Under the pieces are notes generated by a model. The model had not been told where the DNA came from. It saw only the letters and a list, made by a program, of their open reading frames with translations, and searched no databases. A stretch of DNA of 45,209 nt from a virus: positions 1 through 45,209 of IMG/VR virus record IMGVR_UViG_3300005253_000012; one strand, 5' to 3'. Position 1 is the first letter of the stretch, and each line of letters begins with the position of its first letter. Of the stretch, positions 1 to 45,209 are shown one piece after another. Both the position numbers and the translations under genes were made by a program.

Positions 1-121
1 TGGCAGAAGATGGGGCTCGGGATCTTGGGTACTCCAGATGGGCACTACCCGGTGTTGGCTGCTCGAGACTTCAACGTAGAGATTCTCAAGGGGTTCACCG
101 AGGTATGGAGGGCCGGCGAAA
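1..121. repeat. Left copy of 121-bp terminal direct repeat (circular contig overlap)
   Basis: Bases 1-121 are identical to bases 45089-45209. The reading frame of the giant gene runs through the join without change (43052 to 45088 is exactly 679 codons, then continues at base 1). This is what a circular or circularly permuted molecule gives when an assembler leaves one word-length overlap. The repeat lies wholly inside a coding sequence, which argues against a biological terminal repeat. Confidence 0.95.
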
Positions 122-3100: not shown

Positions 3101-6100
3101 AGGGCCGGCCCGAGAGCCCGTGGATTCAGAGGGCTCGGCAGATATTCGATATCAGATCTGACATAAAGCAAGTGGAGACGGGGTGGCTGCTAACGAACGG
3201 CGACATTGTTGAAATGCTCGAGGCCCATGCGGAGATAGGGAGAGTATGGGGAGAGGGTGAGACCAGCGTGGCGTCAGTCGAGAAGTTCCTCGAGACAGGC
3301 GCCGTGCGGTACGGTCTCTACGGAGGCCCCATTCCTGGGAAGCCCGGCATTGTCGCCATAGAGTTCAAAAGTCTGCCGTCCGCCATGCAGAGAGTCAAGC
3401 TCTCAACGCTCATGGAAGGGAACAAGGGCTACGTGGTGGAGTTTCGGTCGCTATCCGGCAAGGACATCCAGACCTTAGTCAACCAGGATTTTCCCACCAG
3501 ATCCCAGATCCAGGGTATGTGGCGCCAGATGATACAGGCGGCCGAGCAGCACACCACCACCTTCTTCCAAGATGCCGACGCTCATAGGCCCTTCTACTCG
3601 CAAATGATCAGGGTGATTGACGCCAAGATGCCGGAGAGGATGCCGGTCGGTGACTTCCTCAACTTCCTAAAAAACAATGGCGTGAAAGCCGACGAGCTCA
3701 AATGGAGCGGGATCGAGGAATATGCAAGGGGGCTGGAGGGAGGCATAGATCAGCCATCGGGTGTCTTTGCTGGTCCCGAGCCTGTGATAGAGAAGTCAAC
3801 GGCTCTGGCCGTCGCTCGAGACCTGACTCCCCTGGTGAAGGAGACCCTCTATCCCGTTGAGCCTACGCCGATACAGCGAGCCGATACATCATGGAGAACC
3901 GAGATCCCTCGTGAGCAGTGGATGGGGGCGGATGTAGGTCATCCCAATCTTGATGCAAGGCCAAGAGCTTTGTGGGCAGGCGGCTTCGACAGTCGTGTGG
4001 TCGACGTTGCTGCCGTCCGGTTTGTAGACAATCCAGGCGCTGGCGCCACCTACGTCGTACACGAATTCATAGGAGGACCGCCAGAGGCACCGTACCCCGA
4101 CATAATGGGCACAGGTCGATTCTTGTTGGAGCAACGTAGCACCGGAGATGTTGTTCGGGCCGACCCCGATCCTTTGACCGGCGCCCCTGATGTGGGGAAA
4201 GCACGGCAGATGATGTTCGACACATTGGAGAACGCCAAGGCCTACGCCGAAGCCATACCTTACGAGACCACAACACAGCGTGCCCAATGGGAGAATGTCA
4301 CCTACCCAGGAGGAACCAACTATCGAGAGGTCGTGCTACATCTGCCTCCGAGAGCGGAGACGGTCCGGGGACTCACAGACAAGATCAACGGCGTGTTCCG
4401 AGTAGAAGTATCAGGGGAAGGCAAGATCGCAGATCCACCGGGGGACCCAGTGGCAGTTCTTGGCCTAGAGCTAATCAGAAGAAACTACACAGGTGACGAG
4501 TTCCCAGGCGTCCAGCAGGCAGTGGCGGAGCTCGATGCGTACGCCAGGATGCTAGGCTACGATCCAGCGTCGATCACGGGAGATTTTGAGACATATGCAG
4601 CCAATATAGATTACCAAAGCCCTCACTTCTCAGAGGTCAACACCATCGCCTTCCCTCGTCTCAAGGATCGCTTCACCGCAGATGGGCGCCGTATCCTATT
4701 CATCGAGGAGCTGCAGTCTGATTGGGGACAGCTTTGGAGAGAGCAGAGCGGCAGGCTTAACGTAGAGGCCAATCGCCAGCCTCCACCTATGCCCTGGCAG
4801 AAGACCTGGCACGAGTACGCAATGCGCCGGATCATGCACATGGCAGCAGAGGAAGGCTACGATGGCGTAGCGTGGAACACAGGCGAAGGGATGTTCCGCA
4901 CGGAGACGGGAGATTTTGCGGGGGAGGGCGCTGTCGACTTCCAGAGCATTGAGTGGAACGTGAGCGACATCGAGGAAGTAGGAAGCCTGACAATCATACG
5001 GCCTGATGAATTGGGAGAGCCGCAGGTAGCTCGACACGAGAACATCACAGCAGCCGCTGCAGAGACCATTCTAGGGCACGACGCATTCATGCAGCTTGTG
5101 AACAACGGAGAACGCTATGCCTTTGACGACGCAACTGGCACCCATCACTACGAGCTCGGATCAGATGACATAGAGGGCAATCGATACAACCGAATGCTCA
5201 AGGGGTTCAAGGGCTTCTACGATGAGATCCTACCCAGCTTTATGAAAAAAGAAGTCAAGAAGTGGGGGGCGCAGGTCGAAGATTTTGAGTTCGGAAGTGG
5301 CGTCACACTAGACGAAACTAACGTGCGGGGGCTAAGAGATCCGGTGACTGGGCAACCGAGGCTAACGCCCGAGCAGCTAAAGCAACTCGAAGACACGACC
5401 TATTCGCCCGGCCACGTGGTCTACATCACAGACGAGATGCGAGCTGGCACGGGACCCGAGTTCAAGCTATTCCAAGAGGCTAACGAGTTCACGCTCAGGG
5501 ACAACGAGCTTACTGCCCGCCGGGCACTACTCGAGGTTATCAGGCAAGAGGAGCTACCCACCCAACCCTTCTACGAGATGGTGGGAGAAGGTAAGCCACT
5601 TGCTGACGTACTTGGCAAGGAGTGGGCAGGGCTAGACGTTCCCAAGTCAGTTCTGGATGCACACATTGTGTGGGAGGAAACACTCAGAGCAGGCCAGTGG
5701 CTCGACGGACAACGCAACATGACCGCAGAGCCGAAGGGTGCAGTGGCCATAGGCCGAGACGGCCGGGCACTCATGCGCTTCTTCAACAATGCCGACCCGT
5801 CGACTGCGATACACGAGGTAGGTCACATCTTCCGTCTGGATCTACAGCCTAGCGAGCTGGGCGTGGTCACGGATTGGCTAAGGAATACTGTACGAAAGCA
5901 TGACGGCGTGGACGTGTCCAAGGTGGAGGTGTTCGAGGGCAGGTTCACTGGCGACGAGGGTGTGCCCCGTGCAGCAGAAGAAGCATTCGCTCGTGGGTTT
6001 GAGAGGTATGTGTCCGAGGGCATAGCCCCGACAGAGGCGCTGCGCTCCGTATTTGAGAAGTTCAGGCAGTGGCTTCTGGGGATCTACCAACAGATCAAAG

Positions 6101-9100
6101 GCAGCGGCATTGACATCCCGCTCAACGAAAGCATGAGAGCTCTATTCTCGGACATGATGGGAGGGAGAGCACCGGACTTCGACATCTACAACACAACCTG
6201 GAAGTCTATCGAGACGGACTCTGTCATCAGGGGGCAGCCGGAGGTAGCGGGCATTCCGCCGCTAGCAACACCTGTATTGGATGTGCCGCCATCGACCCGT
6301 GTGGGAGGGGTAGAAGGCGGCATAACTTCTGCTCATGGTGCAGATCCGAACGTGAGCTACGACTTCCGATACAGAATTATGGACATCTCTGAGATCACGC
6401 CGTCGCATACGCTCGAGGGAAAGCTATCCGAAGGCTACCCCAAGAAGCTGCAGCCTAGAGACCGCAGCCGGGCTGCCAGTGTGAGACAGTCACAGCAGAT
6501 AGCGGCTGAGCTCAATCCAGTCACCCTCCTTGAGCCCAACGTCAGGATCGACGAAGGATCTCCGATCATTGGGCCCGACGGTCTAGTAGAGTCCGGCAGT
6601 GGGAGGATAAATGCCCTCGTACTGGCAATGGAACAGCACCCCGAGGGTTACGCAGCATACAAGCAGCTACTGCTTGACTACGTGCGGGAGGGAACCTATG
6701 GCGACATCGATGTCGCACAGATCCCCGACAATCCGGTGCTTATCAGAGAGCGCCTGACAGAAATGGATCGATTTGAATTTGCCAGGGTCGCCAATGAGTC
6801 TGCTATCCTGGGCACGAGTGCGGCCGAGCAGGCCCTGATCGACACAGGTAAGGTCAGCGACCAGATGCTAGCGGATCTTGTCATCAGCGAGGGGCAGACC
6901 GCGCAGGATGCGCTCAAAGCGCAGGCCAACCAAGGGGTAGTCAGGGAGTTTGTCAATCAGTCTCCGAGGTCCGAGCATGCAATGCTGATGACAAGCGACG
7001 GACAGATTACCCGTCAGGGCATGGATCGATTGCTTGCCGCCATCTTCATGTACGTGTACGGCGACGAGACGGGTAGCCTCCGCCTGGCAGAGACCGTCTT
7101 TGAGTCGACGGATCCGGTGATCAGAAATATCACTAACGGCATGATGGGTGCCGCTGGCGACATGGCCAAGGCAGAGGCATTGATACGATCGGGACGCAGG
7201 CCGCCTGAGTTGTCGCTGATGAGGGACCTGGCGCCAGCCGTTGAAACACTCGAGGGCTTGAAGCGTCGTGGCATACCCCTGGAGGACTTCACTGAGCAAC
7301 GATCTTTTGAGGAGATGGGTGTTGCGCTATCCGAGTTCCAGACTGAGATCCTTATTGACTTGGAGTTAGGAAAGCGCTCAGCCAAGGCCATACGAGACCA
7401 GCTACAGACGTATGCCCGCATGGTCATTCAAGAGCCGGACACAGGGCAGATGGGGCTGCTCGGAGCACACAAATACCCGACCGCCCAGGAGCTGTGGGTT
7501 CGAGCCAAAGAAAGTCCAGCGTCCACCGCCGAGCTATTCCAGTTACCCGAGCAGTACAAAATGCGAGGGCACTTCGATCAGACACCCGGCATCAAAGAGA
7601 ATGCATCCAAATCATCAGAGGGTTTGCGCAACATGCTCGGTATCCTCGACGAGGTGAGAGAGCAGATGACAGGCCCCGAGGGCTTCCTGCAAGAGATCAG
7701 GAGCGAAGACGTGAGAGGGCGCTTAGCACCTGATCAGCAGGCCGAGTTCCAGAAGTGGACAAAGGATCTAAAGGGCCAGCTCACCGGCACGAAATTCTCT
7801 GGTATGAAGTGGGGTGAGGAGACACGTAACTTCTCAATGCTGGACTACACTGCACTGAGGGGGATCGATCTAGGATTTCTTGGCCCCGTAGCTAACTACT
7901 CGTTCTGGCCAACTCGAACCCTGATGCGATGGGCGTTGAGATTTATGGAGTACCCAGCGCTGTTGGCAAACTACGCTCGTCTGAACGAGGCCCGGCGCAA
8001 GCAAGAGGAACGACCAGGCTTCCCAAGAAGGTTGCAAGGCAAGGTCTACATGCCGTTACCGTGGATGCCGGAGTGGATGGGTGGTGGGCTGTGGATTGAT
8101 CCCATTCGGCAATTCTTCCCTCCACATATGTTCCTTGACAATCTTGATCGAGTAGCCACGGCAGCGAACCGAGAGCACAAGCGAGCTACCTACATCTTGC
8201 AGAAGTGGGTAGAGAATGGGGACACACACCCCAGAGACGCACAGGAGGCCATTCAGACGAAGACCGGGCCGCTGTGGCAGATGGCCATCGACCAGGCCAA
8301 CTCCGAGATGGAGCAAGAGTTCAAGGATCCCTTGGACTACATGAATATCGTGACATCGCTCTCGCTCCCTCTCAGCATCGGTCACGAGATTGCCCGGGGT
8401 ACGCCTGAGCGCATTCAGCCAGTGCCATTGACTCGCTACACCAAGACAGCGACGAGCATGTTCTCGCAGATGACAGGCATTGGCCCTCCAGAGGGCATCA
8501 ATCTGGAAGGGCCTATCAGGGAGTTCTTCGACCTACCCAACTATGATCGCTTCGAGGACTATCGAAACGAACGGATGCTGGCCAGCATGGCAGCGGACGA
8601 TCCGAGCATTACACGGGATGCGTTGATTGCCGGCATCGAGAAGGAAGGACCGCTACATGACGAGTCTATACGGCGGGTCAATAGCGCTCGCAACTTCGGC
8701 ATCTATGCCAACCCGGCTTTCTGGGTCTTCGGTCTGGGGGGAGACACGTTCCCGACCGGGGAGGTACGCCAGCGTAAGCTCGGTGAGGAGTTCGGTCTCG
8801 CAATCACAGCCAGGGAAGTAGGCGACAGCACTGCAATCAATCGCTTCTTCGAGAAGTATCCAGAGTACGAGACTCGACTGGCCAGCTTTGACAGCCCCGA
8901 GGAACGGATGCGTTTCTTCCTGGTCGACGAGGTATGGGTCAGGTATCGAGAGCTAGGATCCGCCAACAAAGAGCTGGCACGCAATCAGCTAGGTCAGGAC
9001 TTCTACGATCTGTTCCTGAACAAAGAGACTCGGAGCTATGCGGACATACCGCTTGAGCACCTAGCGTCGTGGGCTCATCTGTTGGGTGGCTACGTGCCCG

Positions 9101-9642
9101 AGAACGCAGAGAACCGGATCGAATACAAGGAGCTGGCACCGCCACTCAATCAACTCCCGCCGGAATACGCCGACATCATTGACACGTTCCGAGAGCAGCG
9201 CAACGTGAAGTTCCCCAACTGGTTTGCGGTGCAGAATCGCTACTTCGCAGCCGGCCCGGCCAAGAGCCAGGCCCGCAAGGATTACCTTGCGGAGTGGCCT
9301 GAGCTCGAAGCCTATTGGGATTGGCGAGAAGACCAGCTCGAAGGTAACGAGTTCTTGAAATCCTACTACCGACGCTACGATCTGGAGAACTATGAGGCCG
9401 GGTCTCTGGGCAGCCTGGGCGTGGCGGAGATACTGACCAACCCCATACTGGTGCGGCAGCTTATGGCCGATCGCTACGGCGGACAGTCCCTCACCACTGG
9501 TGCTCTGGCGGAGCTGCGTCGGATCTATGAGCTCCTGCAGTCGCCAGGCGGAGACTTCAAGGAGTGGATAGACGGGCTTGAGTTCGAGCAGGGCATTGAG
9601 CAGCAAGGGCAGCCAGGCGCCGGGGGGCTGGGCCTGCCATAG
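1..9642 (+). CDS. Giant polyvalent-type virion protein, C-terminal 3,213 of 3,892 residues
   Basis: This is the continuation of the gene that starts at 43052; an ATG at base 10 is internal and not the start. Numbering in the full protein: a SAP-like stretch near 1490-1550; a module at about 2115-2445 with EELQSDW, then WHEYAMRRIMHMAAEEGYDG and a GFYDEILPSF block, a combination I know from very large phage proteins; HEVGH at 2617-2621 after FNNADPSTAI, a zinc-metallopeptidase (gluzincin-like) signature; a DdrB-like ParB superfamily region about 2800-3080 (SGSGRINALVLAMEQHP, MDRFEFARVANES); a Trp/Pro-rich LPD38-like region about 3280-3500. Such domain strings define the polyvalent proteins of phages and conjugative elements, thought to enter the new host with the DNA and to counter defences. 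It lies between portal and scaffold genes, so a virion role is likely. Catalysis and processing are inferred. Domain edges are estimates by eye. Confidence 0.85.
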   Translation, partial: WQKMGLGILGTPDGHYPVLAARDFNVEILKGFTEVWRAGESTRSVLETVQQLFGHESIRETVTQLRDYGDASWNKLQEAVRVGVGEGDEGAINVARAIDSRLLTKQTLDSALKSAYDGRTPLTLDHFRWIVYDAWLQHVGDWSIKAFNVEIEPMFYRLSNAVKQGASIVLLDGNPGYLYANFWNNTSTTAIDGSMGFNSIARIVDYFENTLGFSPSKLEQAFGGIAGTLGEAGLVTSEHLAAMSFAEAIEAGIPELAWAKAREAATFQKLSEKTMGQGAIKMLDRTLGSLRQKTGQEGPGKWSPLIMSRLSAGIERLQGANSYYIGTRSWLNRAWRRAIGFDKLPDGIESALGPELLEKVYGMVEGNLKYELIEKSLLGDGRLEANVQQFAGLVADAMDNRVNAADVVQMLTDTDILPVLEAELPRARTAGDIHIIFADIENQMRGYINQVHAMELITKAGEVGEAIKMGDLTGVHDTWVDLNARMAEWWTSHVLEWGNMVEEADLLVGEGFSDAANALYKARLETAKAEATRIMEMQTAVIDGLVQGLNESGVEVGPKYALGMRLQIAERAKFFEIRDALWEGYGDARNDGTLETGRYVEIIDELAIRYDRLAADEMDLQQIMDAEIVSATADVNLRAATVLSSLLDTIREHQAKIFTQEAAVRTAAHELWNLTTGAEAANVLMRNFAGHPELAKAFDTLVKRWKQRTTEVTPRDLRSFRRQVYDVWSRDVKVEHIKDYYLLRSEGMLEVMSEDANVRPPDVERPEPVRATTESTGSEAEVARAVELVEGGTPPEEATRIASEQIAGETMDVDYSKATTIEELRMRANDAGIATATRDGKPFDGHLLNVLNKDLGLNDSPMKLRRLGDLVDIQREGGGPTDAMDAARQALVNRGAKRLQWRQESRIVNLSIEALTTLDDGIDNVGTKKLRRIAEANGLTEANLMPKEALWSWMDSRRNRLRPVPFEAATPEALKLQIKEAMDRTGYPGSEIADATLATLEARAKAIGMTVGEYIEFRYGLDNPDIIYTFSQMEGRPESPWIQRARQIFDIRSDIKQVETGWLLTNGDIVEMLEAHAEIGRVWGEGETSVASVEKFLETGAVRYGLYGGPIPGKPGIVAIEFKSLPSAMQRVKLSTLMEGNKGYVVEFRSLSGKDIQTLVNQDFPTRSQIQGMWRQMIQAAEQHTTTFFQDADAHRPFYSQMIRVIDAKMPERMPVGDFLNFLKNNGVKADELKWSGIEEYARGLEGGIDQPSGVFAGPEPVIEKSTALAVARDLTPLVKETLYPVEPTPIQRADTSWRTEIPREQWMGADVGHPNLDARPRALWAGGFDSRVVDVAAVRFVDNPGAGATYVVHEFIGGPPEAPYPDIMGTGRFLLEQRSTGDVVRADPDPLTGAPDVGKARQMMFDTLENAKAYAEAIPYETTTQRAQWENVTYPGGTNYREVVLHLPPRAETVRGLTDKINGVFRVEVSGEGKIADPPGDPVAVLGLELIRRNYTGDEFPGVQQAVAELDAYARMLGYDPASITGDFETYAANIDYQSPHFSEVNTIAFPRLKDRFTADGRRILFIEELQSDWGQLWREQSGRLNVEANRQPPPMPWQKTWHEYAMRRIMHMAAEEGYDGVAWNTGEGMFRTETGDFAGEGAVDFQSIEWNVSDIEEVGSLTIIRPDELGEPQVARHENITAAAAETILGHDAFMQLVNNGERYAFDDATGTHHYELGSDDIEGNRYNRMLKGFKGFYDEILPSFMKKEVKKWGAQVEDFEFGSGVTLDETNVRGLRDPVTGQPRLTPEQLKQLEDTTYSPGHVVYITDEMRAGTGPEFKLFQEANEFTLRDNELTARRALLEVIRQEELPTQPFYEMVGEGKPLADVLGKEWAGLDVPKSVLDAHIVWEETLRAGQWLDGQRNMTAEPKGAVAIGRDGRALMRFFNNADPSTAIHEVGHIFRLDLQPSELGVVTDWLRNTVRKHDGVDVSKVEVFEGRFTGDEGVPRAAEEAFARGFERYVSEGIAPTEALRSVFEKFRQWLLGIYQQIKGSGIDIPLNESMRALFSDMMGGRAPDFDIYNTTWKSIETDSVIRGQPEVAGIPPLATPVLDVPPSTRVGGVEGGITSAHGADPNVSYDFRYRIMDISEITPSHTLEGKLSEGYPKKLQPRDRSRAASVRQSQQIAAELNPVTLLEPNVRIDEGSPIIGPDGLVESGSGRINALVLAMEQHPEGYAAYKQLLLDYVREGTYGDIDVAQIPDNPVLIRERLTEMDRFEFARVANESAILGTSAAEQALIDTGKVSDQMLADLVISEGQTAQDALKAQANQGVVREFVNQSPRSEHAMLMTSDGQITRQGMDRLLAAIFMYVYGDETGSLRLAETVFESTDPVIRNITNGMMGAAGDMAKAEALIRSGRRPPELSLMRDLAPAVETLEGLKRRGIPLEDFTEQRSFEEMGVALSEFQTEILIDLELGKRSAKAIRDQLQTYARMVIQEPDTGQMGLLGAHKYPTAQELWVRAKESPASTAELFQLPEQYKMRGHFDQTPGIKENASKSSEGLRNMLGILDEVREQMTGPEGFLQEIRSEDVRGRLAPDQQAEFQKWTKDLKGQLTGTKFSGMKWGEETRNFSMLDYTALRGIDLGFLGPVANYSFWPTRTLMRWALRFMEYPALLANYARLNEARRKQEERPGFPRRLQGKVYMPLPWMPEWMGGGLWIDPIRQFFPPHMFLDNLDRVATAANREHKRATYILQKWVENGDTHPRDAQEAIQTKTGPLWQMAIDQANSEMEQEFKDPLDYMNIVTSLSLPLSIGHEIARGTPERIQPVPLTRYTKTATSMFSQMTGIGPPEGINLEGPIREFFDLPNYDRFEDYRNERMLASMAADDPSITRDALIAGIEKEGPLHDESIRRVNSARNFGIYANPAFWVFGLGGDTFPTGEVRQRKLGEEFGLAITAREVGDSTAINRFFEKYPEYETRLASFDSPEERMRFFLVDEVWVRYRELGSANKELARNQLGQDFYDLFLNKETRSYADIPLEHLASWAHLLGGYVPENAENRIEYKELAPPLNQLPPEYADIIDTFREQRNVKFPNWFAVQNRYFAAGPAKSQARKDYLAEWPELEAYWDWREDQLEGNEFLKSYYRRYDLENYEAGSLGSLGVAEILTNPILVRQLMADRYGGQSLTTGALAELRRIYELLQSPGGDFKEWIDGLEFEQGIEQQGQPGAGGLGLP

Positions 9643-9697: not shown

Positions 9698-10462
9698 ATG
9701 CCAAGCCAATCAGACACGGACCCAACTGACACCACCGAGGCAGGTGGCGGATCTTCCAACAACCCGGCGGGACCGGGCGATCAGGGAGCAACCGACGAGC
9801 GGGACGGTAAGACCCAAGCGACGCTGGCAGATCTGAGCGCTCTGAAGGTTGAGTTCAAAGAAGGCTTAGCCACGCAATACCAGGGTGTTCAATCACTGTT
9901 AGACCGACAATCTGGAAACCTGAAGGCAGCACGAGAGCAGGTGGACCGACAGATCAAAGCCATGGAGGCTATGGGTATCGAGGTCACGCCGGCTCAGGCG
10001 GAGCAGCTAAAGCAAGACGAAGCAGTGCGGGCTCTGACGGCTGCTGAGGAGGAAGGCCCCGACGGTAAGCCTGTCCAGCCAGGACAGAAACCCGCCGAGA
10101 CCGCTCCTGCAGGTGAACAGACGCAAATGGGCAAACTGGCAATGGCCATGATGCAAGAGCAGGGTGTGGTGATTTTACCCACCGATATCGAGCTCGAGAA
10201 GATTGACCAAGAGACCAAGGATCCCAAGGTGTTCATGGACAGTATGCAAGATGCCATCGACGCCAAGATCCAGAGGCTCGCTAACCCAGACGCTACCGGC
10301 AACGGCGAAACCGAAACTGGTCCTCGGGTGAACCCGAGAGGTAAGGGCAGGAAGGCCAACACTGTTCTGCCGGAGAAGACCCCGAGCGGAGCACGGACCG
10401 GCAGCCTGGACTTCCTACAGACCGGGTACGAAGAGTCAGACAAGTTCCCATCCGGGGAATAG
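9698..10462 (+). CDS. Capsid scaffolding protein
   Basis: A 254-residue acidic, Gln/Glu/Lys-rich protein with no hydrophobic core, lying directly upstream of the major capsid gene as scaffolds do. The first 45 residues are low-complexity (Ser/Thr/Gly/Pro). A predicted helical, coiled-coil-like part runs about 50-120 and a second helical part about 145-200. The C-terminus ends in a short region after a basic RGKGRK patch, the usual place for capsid-binding residues. ATG 9698 is preceded by a GGAGG ribosome site. Scaffold proteins direct procapsid assembly and leave before or during packaging. The assignment rests mainly on position, length and composition, since scaffolds share little sequence. 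Confidence 0.75.
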   Translation: MPSQSDTDPTDTTEAGGGSSNNPAGPGDQGATDERDGKTQATLADLSALKVEFKEGLATQYQGVQSLLDRQSGNLKAAREQVDRQIKAMEAMGIEVTPAQAEQLKQDEAVRALTAAEEEGPDGKPVQPGQKPAETAPAGEQTQMGKLAMAMMQEQGVVILPTDIELEKIDQETKDPKVFMDSMQDAIDAKIQRLANPDATGNGETETGPRVNPRGKGRKANTVLPEKTPSGARTGSLDFLQTGYEESDKFPSGE

Positions 10463-10483: not shown

Positions 10484-11455
10484 ATGCCTTCGACACTAAC
10501 ACTTGCTGACTATGCTCAGCTTGCTCCCACCAATATCGAGCGGGGCGTCATTGACGTCTTCCGCAGAGAGTCATTCATCCTCGACAGCTTGGGCTTCGAG
10601 GCGGCTGGCGGATTGCAAAAGACCGTCATTCGATCGGCAGGTCTCCCAGCAGTGGGATTCCGTAAGATCGGTGAAGGCTGGAGCTCATCCAAGGCTTCCT
10701 TCGAACCCATCACGGAGAGGGTGTTCGATCTCGGTGGCGACATCGACGTCGACAAGCTCTTAGTCAAGGCTGATCCATCCCAGATGGGGAAGCACACTGA
10801 GGCGTTCGTTACGGCGATCTCCTACGAGTTCAATGACTACTTCATCAACGGCAGTCCTATCGTGGATCCAGATGGATTTACGGGCATTTGGTATCGCCTC
10901 GTGAATTACCTGTCATCTCGACAGACTGTTAGTGGATCAGGGGTAGACATCTCTCCTAATGCGGGAGCTGGCCTAGCGGCCAACTTCGACACCGTGCTCG
11001 ACCTTCTCGACGAGCTGGCGCATGTTGTTGATGGACATGCACCTGCGATGTTCGTTCTAAACGAGCAACTGTTCCTGCGACTCAACTCTGCATTACGGCA
11101 GAACGGGTTGTGGAGCCAGGATGAAAATTCCTTCGGCTTGCAGATCACTCGTTACGGCCCTTCGGGACCGGCGATCATCGATCTCGGCGTGATGGCGGAC
11201 CAAGTAACTCAGATCATCGGGAATTTGGAGCATGATGCAGGCTCCGACTTCACGAGCGGAGACGCTACATCCATCTATGCAATGCGCACAGGTGGAATGT
11301 ACCTCAATGGACTGCAGCTCTATCCGATGGATGTGAATCCAATCGGCCTGCTGCAGGACGGGGTGACCTACCGCACCGTAATCGACTGGCCCATGGGGAT
11401 CATGCACGAGAACCCTCGGGCACTGGCTCGAGCTGTTGGAATTGTGGCAGCCTAG
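10484..11455 (+). CDS. Major capsid protein (HK97-fold type)
   Basis: 323 residues, directly after the scaffold with a strong GGGAGGAAGG ribosome site. The pattern is that of podovirus-type HK97-fold capsid proteins: an N-terminal arm, an early helix with FRRESFILDSLGF, a phrase GFRKIGEGWSSSKASFEP typical of the E-loop side, a long central region with helix LDLLDELAHVVDGHA, then MFVLNEQLFLRLNSALR and a C-terminal beta-rich part ending near GVTYRTVIDWPMGIMHENPRA. It forms the icosahedral shell and is probably the most abundant structural protein. A terminator-like hairpin follows the next gene. The capsid identity is secure by pattern and position; the exact family is not. Confidence 0.85.
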   Translation: MPSTLTLADYAQLAPTNIERGVIDVFRRESFILDSLGFEAAGGLQKTVIRSAGLPAVGFRKIGEGWSSSKASFEPITERVFDLGGDIDVDKLLVKADPSQMGKHTEAFVTAISYEFNDYFINGSPIVDPDGFTGIWYRLVNYLSSRQTVSGSGVDISPNAGAGLAANFDTVLDLLDELAHVVDGHAPAMFVLNEQLFLRLNSALRQNGLWSQDENSFGLQITRYGPSGPAIIDLGVMADQVTQIIGNLEHDAGSDFTSGDATSIYAMRTGGMYLNGLQLYPMDVNPIGLLQDGVTYRTVIDWPMGIMHENPRALARAVGIVAA

Positions 11456-35990: not shown

Positions 35991-36410
35991 ATGGCCAAGC
36001 AGCTAACGAGAAAACAGCAAAGACTATGCGAGATCATCGTCAGTCACCCCGAGTTCAGCCACGAGCAGGCTGCAGTTGAGGCCGGCTATCAGCTATCGGG
36101 CGCACGGGGCCGGGCATCCTACAACCTCCGCCAGCCCCATGTCCGGCGTTATATCGACGAGCTGCGCAAGATCCTACTGCCGGCACTCAACAGAGAGAAC
36201 GTGGCATTCAGGCTGCAGGAGATTATCGAGATCCCACTTGAAGCCCACAACTTCAACCCCAACGCCAGGGTCAGTGCTGCTCGAGAGGTCGGGCGCATGT
36301 ACGGATGGGGCAAGGAAGAAGTACACCACACACACGAGCTCGAAGGACTCGAAGACTTCACTGTTGTCTTTCACACAGAGGACGAGGTAGACGACGGTGA
36401 AAGCTCTTGA
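35991..36410 (+). CDS. terS: Terminase small subunit
   Basis: 139 residues. The start LTRKQQRLCEIIVSHPEFSH then EQAAVEAGYQLSGARGRASY and NLRQPHVRRYIDELR is the Terminase_2 pattern: helix-turn-helix of the A-A-x-x-A-G-Y type followed by the L-R-x-P-x-V-x-x-Y-I linker. A central helical part (LQEIIEIPLEAHNFNPNARV, AAREVGRMYGWGKEE) would make the oligomer ring. The end is acidic (HTEDEVDDGES), the part that usually contacts the large subunit. It recognises the packaging site. The gene overlaps terL by 14 bases. Confidence 0.85.
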   Translation: MAKQLTRKQQRLCEIIVSHPEFSHEQAAVEAGYQLSGARGRASYNLRQPHVRRYIDELRKILLPALNRENVAFRLQEIIEIPLEAHNFNPNARVSAAREVGRMYGWGKEEVHHTHELEGLEDFTVVFHTEDEVDDGESS

Positions 36411-37809
36411 CTTTCTCAAGCTAGCGAAGTTCACTCCGAAGCAGCTCATAGCATGGTGGAAGATCTATCCCGGCAGCGAGGGGAAGGGTAAGCGCTTCCT
36501 GCTATACGGCGGCGCCAGGGGAGGCGGCAAGTCACGCTTCCTACGATGGGCACTGCTCGGGCTGCTGATCTACTGGGGCAAGATCAATAAGCTCAAGGGC
36601 GTGAAGGTGGTGCTGTTCGCAGAAGACTACCCAACGCTGACCGACAGACAGATCGGCCCAATGCAAGACGAGTTCCCCAAGTGGCTGGGAGAATTGAAGC
36701 GCACCCAGGCAGACGGGCTCGGCTTCCACCTGCGACCCGAGTGGGGCGGCGGACACCTGCTACTGCGAAACATGGGTGAGGACATCAGCAAGTACAAGTC
36801 TGCAGAGTTCGCAGCTATAGCGATCGATGAGCTCACCTTCTGGGATTACAGCGAGTTCGAGATACTGCGTGGATCCTTGCGATGGGCTGGCATAGGACAG
36901 ACTATCTTCCTGGCAGCCACCAACCCTGGAGGCAAGGGCCATCTGTGGGTGAAGGACCTGTGGATAGATAAGAAGCTGACCAGGCACCCCGAGCTCGAGC
37001 CCATCTTTCAAACGTTCGACTTCGTGCAGGCTCTACCGACAGACAACCCCTACCTCGAGCAGACCTACTGGGATGACCTGGCTACACTATCCGAGCAGCT
37101 CAAGAGGGCGTGGCTGTACGGAGACTGGACTGTGTTTGAGGGCCAGGTCTTCACCGAATGGAACCCACTCATTCACACCTGCGATCCGTTCAACATCCCC
37201 GAGGACTGGCCGAAGTGGAGAGGCATCGACCCCGGCTACACGGCGCCGGCATGCACGCTATGGTTTGCAATGAACCCCGAGATGGGCAGGATCTATGTCT
37301 ATCGAGAGGCATACGGGCCAGGACGCAGCGACGAGGCCATGGCCAAGGTCATAGCTGAGTGGAGCAGGGGCGAGACCTACCAAATGAGCTACGCAGATGG
37401 GTCTCTATGGGTGGCATACAAGACTCAGCAAGCAGGCTACACCAGTGGGTACGATGTCTTTATGAGTCAGAAGCCACCTATCCTTATGGAGCCTGGCAAC
37501 AAACAGCGGATCAATGGCAAGCGCAAGGTACATGACGTGCTCGGCAAGCTCAAGGATGGCGGGCCAGGCGTCGTGTTCTTCAAGACCTGTGTCAACCTGA
37601 TCCGCACGCTGCCGGCGCTGCCCTACTCCAAGAAGGCGGGCAAACTCGAGGACGTGGACACTGACGCAGAGGATCACGCCTATGACGCATTCAGGTACGG
37701 ACTGACGAGACTAGCGCCCGAGAGCAGAAGGGGAGATAATGATAAAGCCGACCCAGACACAGCGAAGTGGGTGGCACAGCAAGAGCGACTAGCGGCAGCA
37801 TTTGGATGA
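36397..37809 (+). CDS. terL: Terminase large subunit
   Basis: 470 residues from GTG 36397. ATPase domain: Walker A GGARGGGKS (38-46), adenine/coupling strands VVLFAEDYPTLTDRQ, Walker B IAIDELTF with D144-E145, then the coupling phrase FLAATNPGGKGHLW. Nuclease domain (RNase H fold): first Asp in WRGIDPGYTAPACTLWFAMN (D278), further acidic residues in QMSYADGSLW and DTDAEDHAYDAFRYGL at the end. It pumps DNA into the procapsid through the portal and cuts the concatemer. All motifs are intact. The type of packaging (cos or headful) is not visible from the protein alone. Confidence 0.93.
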   Translation: MKALDFLKLAKFTPKQLIAWWKIYPGSEGKGKRFLLYGGARGGGKSRFLRWALLGLLIYWGKINKLKGVKVVLFAEDYPTLTDRQIGPMQDEFPKWLGELKRTQADGLGFHLRPEWGGGHLLLRNMGEDISKYKSAEFAAIAIDELTFWDYSEFEILRGSLRWAGIGQTIFLAATNPGGKGHLWVKDLWIDKKLTRHPELEPIFQTFDFVQALPTDNPYLEQTYWDDLATLSEQLKRAWLYGDWTVFEGQVFTEWNPLIHTCDPFNIPEDWPKWRGIDPGYTAPACTLWFAMNPEMGRIYVYREAYGPGRSDEAMAKVIAEWSRGETYQMSYADGSLWVAYKTQQAGYTSGYDVFMSQKPPILMEPGNKQRINGKRKVHDVLGKLKDGGPGVVFFKTCVNLIRTLPALPYSKKAGKLEDVDTDAEDHAYDAFRYGLTRLAPESRRGDNDKADPDTAKWVAQQERLAAAFG

Positions 37810-38088: not shown

Positions 38089-38201
38089 CGAGAAGGTTCA
38101 GCCCTTCTCTCGGAGCACTCGGATGAGATGGTGGATCAGGCACATACTGTGGGCATGGAAACAATTACGTGCACGTCGACGTAACGAGAGGAAGGGCACG
38201 C

Positions 38202-40001
38202 ATGGCTAAGCAGCGACAGAAGCCGGAGTCTGGCAGCGAGGGCTATCCAGAGTACGAAGATAAGAGCTTCCAGCAAATGAAGGATCTGGCCATCGAGCTA
38301 CGATCTGACTATCGAGAGCGCAACACAGTCCTCGACGAGCTCGAGCAATACTACACAATGATGTGGAAGAACCCCATACCCAAGGACAGCAATCAAACGG
38401 CCGTCACCTACGACACCGATATGACCAACAGATTCATGGGAGCGTGGCGATTGCTGACGGCCACCGAGCCTGAGTTCTCTGTGCCCACAGATCAGAACAG
38501 CCCAGACACCTTGGCCGTCTCGAGCCCAATGGAGAAGGCGGCCAAGATAATGTGGGCTGCTAGTGGCAAGCAAGGTGGGATGCCGCTCGAGAAGGAAGCG
38601 GTGCACTCGGCGCTGAGTGCCGGGCAGGTAGACATTCTGCTCTCGAACCTTATTGAAGAAGATCAGCCGGACGAGCCAGCACCCGACGAAGACGACGTAT
38701 CCTACTGGCGTCGAAAGAACGCTGAGGCAAAGACGCCCATCTATTTCGAGGTCAGCCCGGTTCGGAATGGTTATGCACTTCGAGCCAAGTACGGGCTGCA
38801 GGCATACGCTCGCATCTATGAGACAACGGTAGCCAAGTTCCGTGAGGAGTGGGCAGATGTCGACACACTGCCCTTCCTGGTCGGCAAGAAAGCACTTGAG
38901 CCCATCAGGGTGATTGACAGCATCAATGAGCAGTTCCGCTACGCCTGGCTCGATGGGGACGAGCGCCCATTCTACGCATACGAAAACAAGAGTGGGATTG
39001 TGCCCGTCATCAGCCAGGTGACAGAGGGATCTCTACTGCTCAACAACCCCAGCTTGCAAGCCCGACCGTTTTTATACACCGCACACAAGTCCGGTCTGCC
39101 TCAGCAGAAGTCAATGGCTCTTACCGCTATCTACACCATCATCAAATCTGTGGCCATGTCGGCAACTTGGAAGCACAAGCGCTCAGCCAAGGACCCTCAC
39201 GACCTGAGAGTTAGGCAGCTCGGGCCACTCAGTGTGTACGAGCTGGAGCAAGACGAAGACATACAGGCCATGCTCTCTAAAGGTGCCATTGACCCGGCAA
39301 TCTTGACGGCACTGGAGATAGCCAACCAACAAATTGCAGAGTCCACGATCTACAGTCAGGCTCTTGGGGAGCCGCTCGGGGCTAACGCTCCGTTCTCGAT
39401 GGTGGCGTTGCTACATCAGGCGGGACGACTGCCGCTAACGGCTCCCAAGGTTCTGACAGGCTGGGCCATAGCATCGGCGATGGAGCTAGCGTTTTTGTGG
39501 CTCAAGGCCACGGGCAAGGATCTCCACCTGAGCTCGATGGGACAGCAAGTGACCGTCAAAGCAGCCGAGATCCCGATCGACGTACAGTTCGAGGCCAAGC
39601 TCGAGATCGATTTGCCCCAGGACATTCGAGAGGTAGCCGGTGTGGTTGGCGCCTTCGAGGGCAAGGTCAGTCAGCGCTGGATCCGAGAGAACCTGATGAA
39701 GGGTGTGGGCCAGAGCGAAGCCATGCAAGAGGAAGTGTGGAGTGAGCAGGCCGGACAGTTCTTCTTCGAGCGCATGCTGATGATGTTCGATCAGATGCAG
39801 CAGCAGGCATCACAGGGTGCGGCGGGTGGTGAAGGTGAGACTGATGTAGCTGCCGACCAACGAGCCCGACTCGACACGACTCGTCAGCGACCATCGGGCA
39901 AAGGCCCACGAGTCGACGACGCCACATCCCGCAACCAACAGCCAACACCGAGGGAACAGAGCTTCGAGCCCTATGCTGGAGGCAAGACCCAGGCGAAGTA
40001 G
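38202..40001 (+). CDS. Portal protein
   Basis: 599 residues from ATG 38202 (ribosome site GAGAGGAAGG); an ATG at 38169 in frame is less likely. The start (SFQQMKDLAIELRSDYRERN, TVLDELEQYYTMMW) and a wing-type section with DMTNRFMGAWRLLTATEPEF are typical of podovirus portals. The stem/crown part has long helices (ATSAM-like VAMSATWKHKRSAKDPHD) and the C-terminus is disordered, Gln- and Gly-rich with Pro (QQQASQGAAGGEGETDVA). Twelve copies form the channel for DNA entry and exit. It lies after terL as expected. Next comes the small gene at 40026. Confidence 0.85.
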   Translation: MAKQRQKPESGSEGYPEYEDKSFQQMKDLAIELRSDYRERNTVLDELEQYYTMMWKNPIPKDSNQTAVTYDTDMTNRFMGAWRLLTATEPEFSVPTDQNSPDTLAVSSPMEKAAKIMWAASGKQGGMPLEKEAVHSALSAGQVDILLSNLIEEDQPDEPAPDEDDVSYWRRKNAEAKTPIYFEVSPVRNGYALRAKYGLQAYARIYETTVAKFREEWADVDTLPFLVGKKALEPIRVIDSINEQFRYAWLDGDERPFYAYENKSGIVPVISQVTEGSLLLNNPSLQARPFLYTAHKSGLPQQKSMALTAIYTIIKSVAMSATWKHKRSAKDPHDLRVRQLGPLSVYELEQDEDIQAMLSKGAIDPAILTALEIANQQIAESTIYSQALGEPLGANAPFSMVALLHQAGRLPLTAPKVLTGWAIASAMELAFLWLKATGKDLHLSSMGQQVTVKAAEIPIDVQFEAKLEIDLPQDIREVAGVVGAFEGKVSQRWIRENLMKGVGQSEAMQEEVWSEQAGQFFFERMLMMFDQMQQQASQGAAGGEGETDVAADQRARLDTTRQRPSGKGPRVDDATSRNQQPTPREQSFEPYAGGKTQAK

Positions 40002-41754: not shown

Positions 41755-43041
41755 ATGCCTTACCTTCCCTCAAGACGCTTTAGGCCAGCCGGCAACTATG
41801 GGAACTACAACCCTGTTGCCCAGCAAGGGCCTGGCGATGACCCAACAATGCCCGAGTGGCTGCGAAGTGCCCTTGCCGGCGCCTCGCAGCCCTCGCCCTC
41901 GCCTACCCCACAGCCAAGAGATCAGGCACGAGAGTACATGGACGCTATTAGGCGTGGGGAGCCCGGAGCTATCGGCCCATCAAGAGATCAAGGCAGAGAG
42001 TATGTAGATGCTGTTAGGCGTGGGGAGCCGGGCGCCATAGGACCCAGAGATCAGGGACGTGAGATGGCCGAAGCCGTAGTGTATGGTCGAGGAAGGGGGA
42101 CCAACAGGGCTCCCGAGCCTTCCGGTGCCATCCCGTTCTGGGAGGAGATTGGCAACTGGTGGCCTGGGTCGACCCCCAATAGGATGCTGCAAGAATTCAT
42201 AGCACCCAAGCCTTCTAACATACCCGAGCTCGGATCCCCCTACGAGGGAGGCGGCGGTTTCATCGACGACGAGGTCAACAAGTTCTTACAGAGTCTCGGC
42301 AACTTCGAGCTGCCAGGAACAGGCGTAGGCGGAGGCGTTGGCCCATTGCCAGCTTCAATGGGTGGTGGAGGCGGCGGAATTGAAGGAGCGCCTGACGTAC
42401 TGGATACGCTAGGTGCCCTGGTCGGTGATGCACCACGAGGCACCATGGCCGAAAACAGAGCGGGTTTCCAAGAGTGGCTGAGTAATCTGTTCCCCGCAAG
42501 CCGGTTCGAACCTAAGCCAGGTGTCATGGGCAACATTCAGGAGTTCTTTGCGCCATCACCTGCCGGCGAGTACCAAGGCAGGAACCCGTACGCAGCCACA
42601 AGGGGAGAGCCCCAAGGCCCAGATCTCCTAGAAGGCATAGCCAATTTTGTAGGCAACTTTGTGTTGCCGGGTACGGAGAACATACCTCACGCTACCACGA
42701 CCGATCGCCCTGGAGGAGAAGGTGGTGGAGCTGGAACATTCTATGACCAGGGTGACAACCAAGCCAACTTGCAAGCGTTGTCCGATTTGCTGGGCATTCC
42801 GATTGACGAGCTGATCAATCGAGGTCTCAACCCGACACAAATCCCCGGAGCATATCAGACAGGGAACATCATGCAAGATGCCTGGCTAGCCACAGGCGGT
42901 GTACCTGTTTACGATACGACAGGACCAGTGGGTCCGTCCTTCTCTGGCGCAGGCGGTGGTGGCTTCGGCGGATTCAACTTCGCTCCCGGCGACCCCGCAG
43001 ATCCTCGCTTCTGGCTGGACATGGTGCGCTGGCTGATCTAA
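41755..43041 (+). CDS. Low-complexity virion protein with 21-22-residue tandem repeats
   Basis: 428 residues, rich in Gly, Pro and Asn. Residues about 55-115 hold a repeat starting at 41917, 41983 and 42046 (RDQAREYMDAIRRGEPGAIG, RDQGREYVDAVRRGEPGAIG, RDQGREMAEAV), 66 and 63 bases long. Later a pattern of W-P-G, FxxP and Gly-rich loops recurs (LSNLFPASRFEPKPGVMGNI, QEFFAPSPAGEYQGRNPYAA). It lies 10 bases before the giant gene, and shares its Pro-rich, Trp-containing style, so both may be assembled in the head together. No enzyme motif. Probably disordered in part. Confidence 0.65.
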   Translation: MPYLPSRRFRPAGNYGNYNPVAQQGPGDDPTMPEWLRSALAGASQPSPSPTPQPRDQAREYMDAIRRGEPGAIGPSRDQGREYVDAVRRGEPGAIGPRDQGREMAEAVVYGRGRGTNRAPEPSGAIPFWEEIGNWWPGSTPNRMLQEFIAPKPSNIPELGSPYEGGGGFIDDEVNKFLQSLGNFELPGTGVGGGVGPLPASMGGGGGGIEGAPDVLDTLGALVGDAPRGTMAENRAGFQEWLSNLFPASRFEPKPGVMGNIQEFFAPSPAGEYQGRNPYAATRGEPQGPDLLEGIANFVGNFVLPGTENIPHATTTDRPGGEGGGAGTFYDQGDNQANLQALSDLLGIPIDELINRGLNPTQIPGAYQTGNIMQDAWLATGGVPVYDTTGPVGPSFSGAGGGGFGGFNFAPGDPADPRFWLDMVRWLI

Positions 43042-43051
43042 GGAGCGCCCC

Positions 43052-45209
43052 ATGCCCATTGAGCCACTTACACCCCCAGAACCCCCAGAACCCCAAGACC
43101 AAGAGCCCAGCCCATTCTCGGGGACTTCCGCATTCTGGCAGGATTTCTATTCGAAGCTCTTTTGGCGGCAGAAGAAAGATGAGGTCATTCAACAGGGACC
43201 CCAGCCAATCTTTGGGGAGGGCTATCATCCTGTCTGGGAGCAAGACACGGCTCGGTTTCAGGCCCAAGCCATACTTGAGACCCGAGGTAAACCAGGCCCC
43301 ATGGCTCCGTTCGGAGGGCTCGAGGGCTACGTTGAGAATCAATTAGGCTACCTGCCCAGCTATTGGGAAGATCCGAAGCGTATTGGTAAGTGGTATCACA
43401 AAATGGCTGCGCTCCCAGAGGGAGCCGACCCTCCCGAGTGGATCGATCGTGACAAGCTCACGGCAGCTTACAAGTATTTCGAAAAGGTGAATGAAGCCAG
43501 GCCATGGTGGGACTGGAAATTCCTGCACCCAACCGACCCTGGCCGGCAGTTCTTACAGAGCTTTACCGTGCCTCCGCCCGAGGATCTCTACCCAGAGGAG
43601 CTGCTCTACACGCCTGGCGTGGTGGCAGAGGAGCCGAGCACTGGCCCACCATTACCAGGTACACCTGAATGGGAGAAGATGGATCTGTGGCAGAAGGTCA
43701 TGGTGTCTGTCTTTGGGGCAGGTCCAAGCATCCTTGACCCATACGACATAGACCGAGGTGGCGTCTTAGGCGCCCCGCTACGCTCCGGACTAGCAACGTT
43801 CGGCAAGGGCTTTGTGAAGGGTGCTCCAACAGGGGCAGCTATCGGCTTCTTCACCACAGGGCCAGCCGGCATTCTCGGTGGCGGGCTGATTACTGGAATG
43901 GTTGGAGGGTTGGCCGAGGTAGGGCTTGAGACTATTCACGAGCTGCAATCCAGGGGTTTGAGCTTCGAGCTCGGCGGCATCACGGACACGGCACTCGAGT
44001 ACTTTCTAAATCAAGCCTTGGGATTGATCCAGTATCCAGCAGAACAAATCGAGCGTGCTATCGGCACAGGCGTACAGATCGAGTCAGCCTTACAGGATCC
44101 AAACAAGTACGGGCCTGTAGCTGAGGTCTTCGGCAATCTCAACCTACTAGAGTTTCAAGGCAAAAAGGCGCAAGGTCTGGTGAGCTTCTTGCCGTACATC
44201 GGAGGAGCAACGGGCAACATCGCCAGCCTGACATACGAAACAAACGTCGGCGTGCAGCGTGTCATCACGCACGGCTTGGAATATCTAAGCACGGCAATCT
44301 CTCAGCTCGGCGGCCAACCCGAGCAGCTCCAGCTCTCTAAGCCCGATGAGATCTGGGACCTGGGAGGCACTGAGCCACGCAAGATAGGGCCAAACACTCC
44401 GGACACTGCAGTAGCAGTATGGAAGTGGGCGCTAGCAACAGGGCGACAAGAGCTGATGACGACCGAGATGGCGCCTCGTGACGCAGTGCTGGGGATAGGC
44501 GCTCGGTTCGGGATCTCCGGCATCCTGTCTGATCTATTCATGCAGGCACTACTGGACCCCCTCAACTTCACACCCAAATTCGAGGTTGGGCTGGCTCGGG
44601 GCATAGCCAGGGACACAGGTATAGGTGGCCAGCTAAGCAAGATCTTGAAGATAGGTGGCGACGAGAAGGCCGCACTCAACAAAGCCATCACCATGATCGA
44701 GCTGGATCAGGGTAGGTTCCGTGACATACGTGGTGTGCCGTCAGGGCTCAAGTTCCTGCGAGGCCAGATGCAGGTGGGTGGACGAGAGGTACTGGCTACA
44801 TTCGCCAACATCCTCCGCACAGATGTAAACCTGGGCCAGATAGAGACAGTCAAAGGCATGGGCACGTTCGCTCGCTGGCTAGCCGGCGTTGACGCAGAGG
44901 GCGCACCGAGGATTACCATGGCTCAGAAGGGGGTCTTTGGTAAGCTGTTCGGTCTCACACCTAAAGCCCGAGCAACCAAGTTCTTATTCACATCGCACGA
45001 TGTGGTCAAGCTGGTGCTGGACATGGCTGATAGCCCCGAGGCCATAGCTAAGACCTTCCAGGCAATGGCGTCGGGAGATGCAGCGCAGTGGCAGAAGATG
45101 GGGCTCGGGATCTTGGGTACTCCAGATGGGCACTACCCGGTGTTGGCTGCTCGAGACTTCAACGTAGAGATTCTCAAGGGGTTCACCGAGGTATGGAGGG
45201 CCGGCGAAA
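43052..45209 (+). CDS. Giant polyvalent-type virion protein, N-terminal 679 residues (continues at base 1)
   Basis: ATG 43052 follows AAGGAGCG and opens a frame that runs to the contig end and on through the join to 9642: 679 plus 3,213 residues. Bases 45089-45209 repeat the first 121 bases. This part starts with a Pro-rich stretch (EPLTPPEPPEPQDQEPSPFS), a Trp/Tyr-rich folded section about 25-160, then a long Gly/Ala hydrophobic stretch about 240-293 (GAAIGFFTTGPAGILGGGLI) that could enter a membrane. The rest is helical (FGNLNLLEFQGKKAQGLVSF, LSKILKIGGDEKAALNKAI). An N-terminal membrane-active region on an ejected giant protein would resemble the internal core proteins of podoviruses, though no lytic transglycosylase motif is seen. 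No stop, frameshift or break at the join. Confidence 0.85.
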   Translation, partial: MPIEPLTPPEPPEPQDQEPSPFSGTSAFWQDFYSKLFWRQKKDEVIQQGPQPIFGEGYHPVWEQDTARFQAQAILETRGKPGPMAPFGGLEGYVENQLGYLPSYWEDPKRIGKWYHKMAALPEGADPPEWIDRDKLTAAYKYFEKVNEARPWWDWKFLHPTDPGRQFLQSFTVPPPEDLYPEELLYTPGVVAEEPSTGPPLPGTPEWEKMDLWQKVMVSVFGAGPSILDPYDIDRGGVLGAPLRSGLATFGKGFVKGAPTGAAIGFFTTGPAGILGGGLITGMVGGLAEVGLETIHELQSRGLSFELGGITDTALEYFLNQALGLIQYPAEQIERAIGTGVQIESALQDPNKYGPVAEVFGNLNLLEFQGKKAQGLVSFLPYIGGATGNIASLTYETNVGVQRVITHGLEYLSTAISQLGGQPEQLQLSKPDEIWDLGGTEPRKIGPNTPDTAVAVWKWALATGRQELMTTEMAPRDAVLGIGARFGISGILSDLFMQALLDPLNFTPKFEVGLARGIARDTGIGGQLSKILKIGGDEKAALNKAITMIELDQGRFRDIRGVPSGLKFLRGQMQVGGREVLATFANILRTDVNLGQIETVKGMGTFARWLAGVDAEGAPRITMAQKGVFGKLFGLTPKARATKFLFTSHDVVKLVLDMADSPEAIAKTFQAMASGDAAQWQKMGLGILGTPDGHYPVLAARDFNVEILKGFTEVWRAGE
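45089..45209. repeat. Right copy of 121-bp terminal direct repeat
   Basis: Identical to bases 1-121; see the left copy. The repeated bases should be counted once, giving a 45,088-bp circle. Confidence 0.95.

What the first reader, a model, noticed from the sequence alone, without database searches (positions are those of the whole stretch)
43052..45209. One 3,892-codon gene hidden by the contig break
The frame from 43052 (679 codons) joins exactly in phase with the frame ending at 9642. Read linearly it appears as two partial genes with an incorrect ATG at base 10. The joined protein would fill 26% of the genome and rank among very large phage proteins. Its place between portal and scaffold genes suggests a virion or ejected role.
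Basis: seen in the sequence. Interest (0 to 1): 0.85.

Follow-up and report, generated by a model that had tools for sequence, protein, structure and literature searches.

The report
Giant phage cargo protein, cut artificially
An uncultured bacterial virus carries one 3,892-residue gene that the assembly cut in two; it belongs to a family of giant phage proteins with two constant ends around a cargo section of very variable size, probably injected into the host cell with the virus DNA.

Summary
The 45,209-base contig ends in an exact 121-base overlap. Once it is closed, frames 43052-45088 and 1-9642 join in phase into one 3,892-codon gene, 26% of the 45,088-bp genome. Nine relatives carry the same region uninterrupted, and each gives a single collinear protein match across residue 679/680 (best E=1e-97). 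A second circular contig is opened in the orthologous gene and also rejoins in phase (3,418 aa). The break is an assembly artefact; the gene is real.

The protein is a phage-type polyvalent protein, a known kind: DdrB-like ParB domain (Pfam E=7e-24), zincin-type metallopeptidase (HEVGH), located between a TerL-portal block and scaffold-capsid genes. In this uncultured lineage, 32 analysed genes share a constant N-terminal module (~1,050-1,350 aa) and C-terminal module (~700 aa). The section between them ranges from 30 to 4,887 aa. The metallopeptidase occurs in 21 of 22 long-insert members and none of 10 short ones.

Best reading: a virion-packaged ejection chassis carrying swappable effectors (nuclease, ADP-ribosyltransferase, RNase, GGDEF, helicase), released by the peptidase. 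Packaging, ejection and cleavage are inferred, not shown. New variant of a known kind.

The parts
43052..45088 (+). Giant gene, first part: codons 1-679 (ATG 43052 with AGGAG upstream)
   Evidence: matches in relatives continue across the join
1..9642 (+). Giant gene, second part: codons 680-3892 and stop
45089..45209 (.). Second copy of the first 121 bases: assembly overlap that closes the circle
   Evidence: a comparable 127-bp overlap in G007
43334..45088 (+). Constant N-terminal module, first half (residues ~95-679), predicted mostly helical
   Evidence: model of a relative, (mean pLDDT 67)
1..2013 (+). Constant N-terminal module, second half (residues 680-~1350), with a sub-threshold LPD38 match around residues 800-929
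43814..43921 (+). Glycine-zipper-like hydrophobic stretch (residues ~255-290); the most hydrophobic segment lies within residues 150-380 in 26 of 34 family members
   Evidence: glycine-zipper Pfam matches in some relatives
2020..7434 (+). Variable cargo section (residues ~1353-3157)
4114..5343 (+). Cargo domain of unknown function (residues 2051-2460); present in G002 and L024, twice in G009; related to part of Pelagibacter phage HTVC028P gp34
5731..6162 (+). Zincin-type metallopeptidase module (residues 2590-2733) with HEVGH at 2617-2621 (window 5812-5826)
   Evidence: homologous to BPP-1 Bbp10 and Cobetia phage Carin1 gp32
6352..6753 (+). DdrB-like ParB domain PF18763 (residues 2797-2930)
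   Evidence: E=7e-24; 36% identity to P1 DdrB
7435..9615 (+). Constant C-terminal module (residues 3158-3884), predicted almost all helical
   Evidence: model (mean pLDDT 73)
41755..43041 (+). Gly/Pro-rich 428-aa partner gene directly upstream; in the family it keeps mainly a C-terminal motif (here ...FWLDMVRWLI)
38169..40001 (+). Portal-like gene (610 aa), by position after TerL and weak PHROG matches of relatives
36397..37809 (+). Terminase large subunit
   Evidence: (TIGR01547 E=1.7e-8, below its cut-off); TerL profile match of a relative
9698..10462 (+). Putative scaffold gene, directly before the capsid gene in the family
   Evidence: position and homology
10484..11455 (+). Major capsid protein (GP7 / phrog_212 type; homologous to BPP-1 major head protein)

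Best explanation
Bases 43052-45088 and 1-9642 are one 3,892-aa gene split by where the assembler opened a circular genome (shown). The product is a phage-type polyvalent protein (shown by domains and context). It is built as a constant N-terminal module with a glycine-zipper-like stretch and a constant C-terminal module, with a variable cargo section between them (shown by comparison of 32 genes). The constant modules most likely package the protein in the capsid near the portal and take it through the envelope with the DNA (inferred). The zincin-type peptidase in the cargo section most likely cleaves the polypeptide, before or after entry, to free effectors (inferred). In this phage these include a DdrB-like ParB nuclease that would act against host restriction or DNA (inferred from homologues).
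For: Join. Domains: DdrB-ParB E=7e-24 and 36% identity to P1 DdrB; HEVGH module found by profile in 21 of 32 family members and homologous to BPP-1 Bbp10 and Carin1 gp32. Context: TerL-portal-small gene-Gly-rich gene-giant-scaffold-MCP order repeated across the loci. Chassis and cargo: total length 1,801-7,000 aa while N and C modules stay constant and the middle ranges from 30 to 4,887 aa. Cargo diversity in relatives: ddrB-ParB, ART-PolyVal, GGDEF, PBECR5, LPD5, LPD1, RadC, DarB-like, DNA methyltransferase, weak SNF2. Peptidase present in 21/22 with middle >=657 aa and 0/10 with middle <=363 aa; at least six changes of state on the C-module tree, sisters G009 (4,695 aa) and L022 (2,282 aa) differing by the cargo. 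Precedent: Iyer et al. 2017 (PMC5512222); P1 virion proteome with DdrB in the head (PMC9024508).
Against: No virion proteomics, no cleavage data and no cultured relative. N and C modules match no known ejection protein by sequence or fold, and the models are of modest confidence. The link between peptidase and cargo has only 5 informative independent pairs (sign test p=0.0625), and G004 has long cargo without the peptidase. The glycine-rich stretch is weak or absent in some members.
Confidence: 0.72

Rival explanations
1. The 121-base repeat is a true terminal repeat of a linear genome, and the two frames are separate partial genes at its ends.
For: Some short-tailed phages have exact terminal repeats of one to a few hundred bases (own knowledge); the repeat is exact.
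Against: The repeat lies inside a coding region that is internal and uninterrupted in nine relatives. A second contig with a different overlap length (127) is cut at another place in the same gene. Real ends inside an essential-looking gene are unlikely.
Confidence: 0.02
2. The giant is purely a structural or ejection protein; the inserted domains are tolerated passengers or help DNA entry rather than attack host systems.
For: Minimal members of 1,801-1,890 aa consist of the N and C modules almost alone, so the conserved function does not need cargo; both modules are predicted helical.
Against: The inserts are recognised effector-type domains seen in polyvalent proteins elsewhere (PMC5512222), are gained or lost repeatedly, and nearly always come with a peptidase.
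Confidence: 0.15
3. The giant is made late and acts inside the producing cell (capsid assembly or genome maturation) and is not ejected.
For: Its gene is in the morphogenesis cluster; P1 Dar proteins are linked to capsid morphogenesis as well as antirestriction (abstracts).
Against: P1 DdrB is found in the mature head (PMC9024508), and packaged entry is the usual proposal for this class (PMC5512222).
Confidence: 0.1

Closest known systems
Phage-type polyvalent proteins (Iyer et al. 2017, PMC5512222)
   Same: Very large; DdrB-ParB and zincin-type peptidase in one chain; ART, PBECR, GGDEF, RadC and methylase-helicase in relatives; encoded by a portal-terminase phage among virion genes.
   Different: This family has constant N and C modules framing one variable section. 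The paper says polyvalent proteins did not conform to the constant-plus-variable layout of secreted toxins. The modules are not covered by Pfam apart from a sub-threshold LPD38 match and glycine-zipper hits.
Phage P1 DdrB
   Same: Homologous ParB-type domain, about 36% identity over residues 2787-3056; P1 DdrB also carries a C-terminal peptidase (PMC5512222).
   Different: P1 DdrB is a much smaller head protein (108.7 kDa in PMC9024508) without match to the N and C modules; it helps load DarB.
BPP-1 Bbp10 (2,052 aa) and Cobetia phage Carin1 gp32 (about 2,855 aa)
   Same: Homologous peptidase module (E about 1e-28); BPP-1 also shares capsid and terminase ancestry with the window.
   Different: They lie after the internal virion genes, not between portal and scaffold, and have no match to the N or C module.
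Uncultured podovirus genomes from Manatee Spring (MW202725 and like records), UOF81132, 2,156 aa
   Same: Same gene order; N and C modules homologous.
   Different: Short-cargo form without peptidase or ParB domain.
DarB-like giants of Bcep22-like podophages, e.g. Parlo 3,764 aa (PMC6606913)
   Same: Similar size, antirestriction-type cargo in a short-tailed phage.
   Different: Methylase-helicase and transglycosylase architecture; not among the listed matches of searches with this protein.

Membership tests
Phage-type polyvalent protein | Large multidomain chain (often >2,000 aa) | tested here: met
   3,892 aa
Phage-type polyvalent protein | At least one signature domain above curated threshold | tested here: met
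   PF18763 ddrB-ParB, 84.7 bits against a cut-off of 27.6
Phage-type polyvalent protein | Zincin-like metallopeptidase in the same chain | tested here: met
   HEVGH module conserved in relatives and homologous to Bbp10 and Carin1 gp32; no Pfam peptidase model matched it in the window, activity untested
Phage-type polyvalent protein | Encoded next to virion genes of a portal-terminase phage | tested here: met
Phage-type polyvalent protein | Packaged in the virion and delivered to the host | not testable with these tools
   needs virion proteomics
P1 DdrB orthologue | Homology over the whole length | tested here: not met
   only the ParB-type region matches
N4-type virion RNA polymerase | RNA polymerase module | tested here: not met
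   no RNA polymerase family in Pfam, PHROGs or NCBIfam scans
MuF-fusion effector | MuF domain | tested here: not met
   no MuF match in the window or relatives
Podoviral ejection proteins (T7 gp14/15/16, P22 gp7/16/20) | Sequence or fold homology to known ejection proteins | tested here: inconclusive
   no sequence match and no Foldseek match at E<=0.001; models of modest confidence (pLDDT 67 and 73); N module not compared with the PDB by fold

The most novel reading that the evidence does not exclude
The N and C modules form a previously undescribed single-chain virion ejection machine that works on its own (minimal forms of about 1,800 aa) and serves as an expandable carrier: effector cassettes of up to about 4,900 residues are inserted between the two modules together with a peptidase that cuts them free in the host.
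Probability: 0.35. Interest if true: 0.75.

Novelty: new variant of a known kind. Interest (0 to 1): 0.52.

Why it matters
It corrects a gene-calling error that will recur: a gene filling a quarter to a third of a circular phage genome is often cut when the contig is opened, and it happened in a second genome here. It also defines a family in which the same carrier is seen with almost no cargo and with thousands of residues of it, sometimes between sister genomes. That is a natural experiment for how phages load, move and release protein effectors.

Tried and rejected
Search for close relatives with the join region in viral contigs: none; solved by using an alignment of the C-terminal module. 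PDB sequence profiles of both modules: only chance matches. Fold searches of the C module (viral, PDB) and of the N module (viral): nothing at E<=0.001; tape-measure and helical proteins at the top are not meaningful. LPD38 in the N module: E=0.004 in the window and one of 29 relatives at E<=0.1, so only a hint. Peptidase encoded as a separate gene in short members: none found in the held flanks. Genome scan for hosts: one usable hit. N4-type RNA polymerase and MuF: no match. In one search two proteins from one file were run together as one subject; the reported matches lie within the first protein and agree with clean input. A GGDEF-like motif in the N part of G009 is not a domain match and was ignored.

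Full report
CHECK OF THE OBSERVATION. The contig begins and ends with the same 121 bases, so the circle is 45,088 bp. Frame 43052-45088 has 679 codons and frame 1-9642 has 3,213 codons and a stop; they join in phase into 3,892 aa. The start at 43052 has AGGAG upstream, codon-position GC is alike on both sides, and a stop-free run of this length has a chance probability near 1e-68. An in-phase join by itself is a one-in-three event, so I looked for homologues.

THE JOIN IN RELATIVES. Using the C-terminal part aligned with a Manatee Spring podovirus protein, 49 loci were found in viral contigs. Full frames were read from the loci and from further stretches of their contigs. BLASTP of the joined protein against them gives single collinear matches running through residue 679/680 in nine relatives with an uninterrupted frame, best E=1e-97. 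A second circular contig, G007, is opened in the orthologous gene with a 127-base overlap and rejoins to 3,418 aa in phase. The contig break is therefore an assembly artefact.

WHAT THE PROTEIN IS. Pfam finds a ddrB-ParB domain (E=7e-24, residues 2797-2930) and a sub-threshold LPD38 match; the ParB region is 36% identical to P1 DdrB. A module with HEVGH at residues 2617-2621 is homologous to modules of BPP-1 Bbp10 and Cobetia phage Carin1 gp32 and fits the zincin peptidases described for polyvalent proteins (PMC5512222). The genes around it are TerL, a portal-like gene, small genes, a Gly/Pro-rich gene, the giant, a putative scaffold and a capsid protein of GP7/BPP-1 type. The portal and scaffold names rest on position, homology among relatives and, for the portal, weak PHROG matches.

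FAMILY ANATOMY. In 34 full frames, of which 32 had clear boundaries, profiles of the N module (about 1,050-1,350 aa) and C module (about 700 aa) match throughout while the section between them ranges from 30 to 4,887 aa; total lengths are 1,801-7,000 aa. The N profile was built from rows cut at 1,200 residues, so its right edge is approximate. The middle carries different domains in different members: ddrB-ParB, ART-PolyVal, GGDEF, PBECR5, LPD5, LPD1, RadC, DarB-like and DNA methyltransferase families, weak SNF2. The domains change position and can be duplicated.

PEPTIDASE AND CARGO. The peptidase module is found in 21 of 22 members with a middle of at least 657 aa and in none of 10 with at most 363 aa. 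On a tree of the C module the state changes at least six or seven times; five of six independent pairs agree and one is uninformative (p=0.0625), so the association is suggestive but not secure by that test. Sisters G009 (4,695 aa) and L022 (2,282 aa) differ by the cargo. No separate peptidase gene was seen in the held flanks of short members. G004 is the exception: long cargo, no peptidase found.

STRUCTURE. AlphaFold2 models of the C module (pLDDT 73) and of the N module of relative L071 (pLDDT 67) are almost wholly helical. No fold match reaches E<=0.001. The most hydrophobic segment lies within residues 150-380 in 26 of 34 members and is usually rich in spaced glycines, which would fit membrane contact during ejection; this is inference.

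MECHANISM. Shown: one gene; domain content; constant-variable-constant layout; conserved place among virion genes. Inferred: packaging in the head, ejection with the DNA, membrane contact by the glycine-rich stretch, release of cargo by the peptidase, and counter-defence by the ParB-type nuclease. Precedents: DdrB in P1 heads (PMC9024508) and the general proposal for polyvalent proteins (PMC5512222).

COMPARISON AND NOVELTY. It meets the tested criteria for a phage-type polyvalent protein. GGDEF and other cargo domains, and mosaic cargo in one orthologous family (Helicobacter prophages), are already described in PMC5512222. What I did not find described is a family with two constant framing modules, existing with and without cargo; this was judged only from the papers read here. 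No cultured phage in the 50,697-record collection matched the short-form family proteins; only Manatee Spring environmental genomes did, and the window's portal-like protein has no match there. One relative lies in a prophage-like region of a rumen Chloroflexi MAG contig with chromosomal-type genes around it, recognised by eye: a hint to hosts of the family, not proof for this phage.

VERDICT. The split is a routine artefact; the interest lies in the family layout.

Noticed in passing
41755-43041 and the equivalent gene in about 26 loci: The Gly/Pro-rich gene just before the giant is hardly alignable across the family, yet its last ~12 residues keep a pattern like PxW...L..W(R/N)(I/F); a hand-made pattern matched 19 of 26 such ORFs against 10 of 707 others (the pattern was made after seeing the sequences). 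One homologue begins with a LysM domain. The tail may be a docking peptide.
   Followed up: partly
L074 + L075 (G008, 86,691-bp contig, about 28.7-49.7 kb): A relative has an uninterrupted ORF of about 7,000 aa with a 4,887-aa cargo section.
   Followed up: partly
L028 and L077 (G007, 44,790 bp): Another circular contig is cut inside the same gene: 127-bp exact overlap, 3,418 aa when joined.
   Followed up: yes
L073 (G009), L021, L074 (G008): GGDEF (diguanylate cyclase) domains above the Pfam cut-off in the cargo section of three relatives; the GGDEF motif is intact in G009 and L021.
   Followed up: partly
L083 (CADATZ010000005.1): A relative of 3,311 aa in a rumen Chloroflexi MAG contig with flanking genes of chromosomal type: likely a prophage and a host hint.
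   Followed up: partly
L022 14092-14787 and L034 12831-13541: Both sister genomes carry an ORF between the giant and the scaffold gene that looks like a DNA adenine methylase (read by eye), a further candidate counter-restriction gene.
   Followed up: no
MW202608, MW202725, MW202812, MW202826, MW202842: Five GenBank phage records of equal length appear to be rotations or strand flips of one genome.
   Followed up: no
L054 (IMGVR_UViG_3300005663_000171): A 28-kb contig has a capsid protein identical to the window's, probably the same or a very near phage; no part of the giant's C module was found in it.
   Followed up: no
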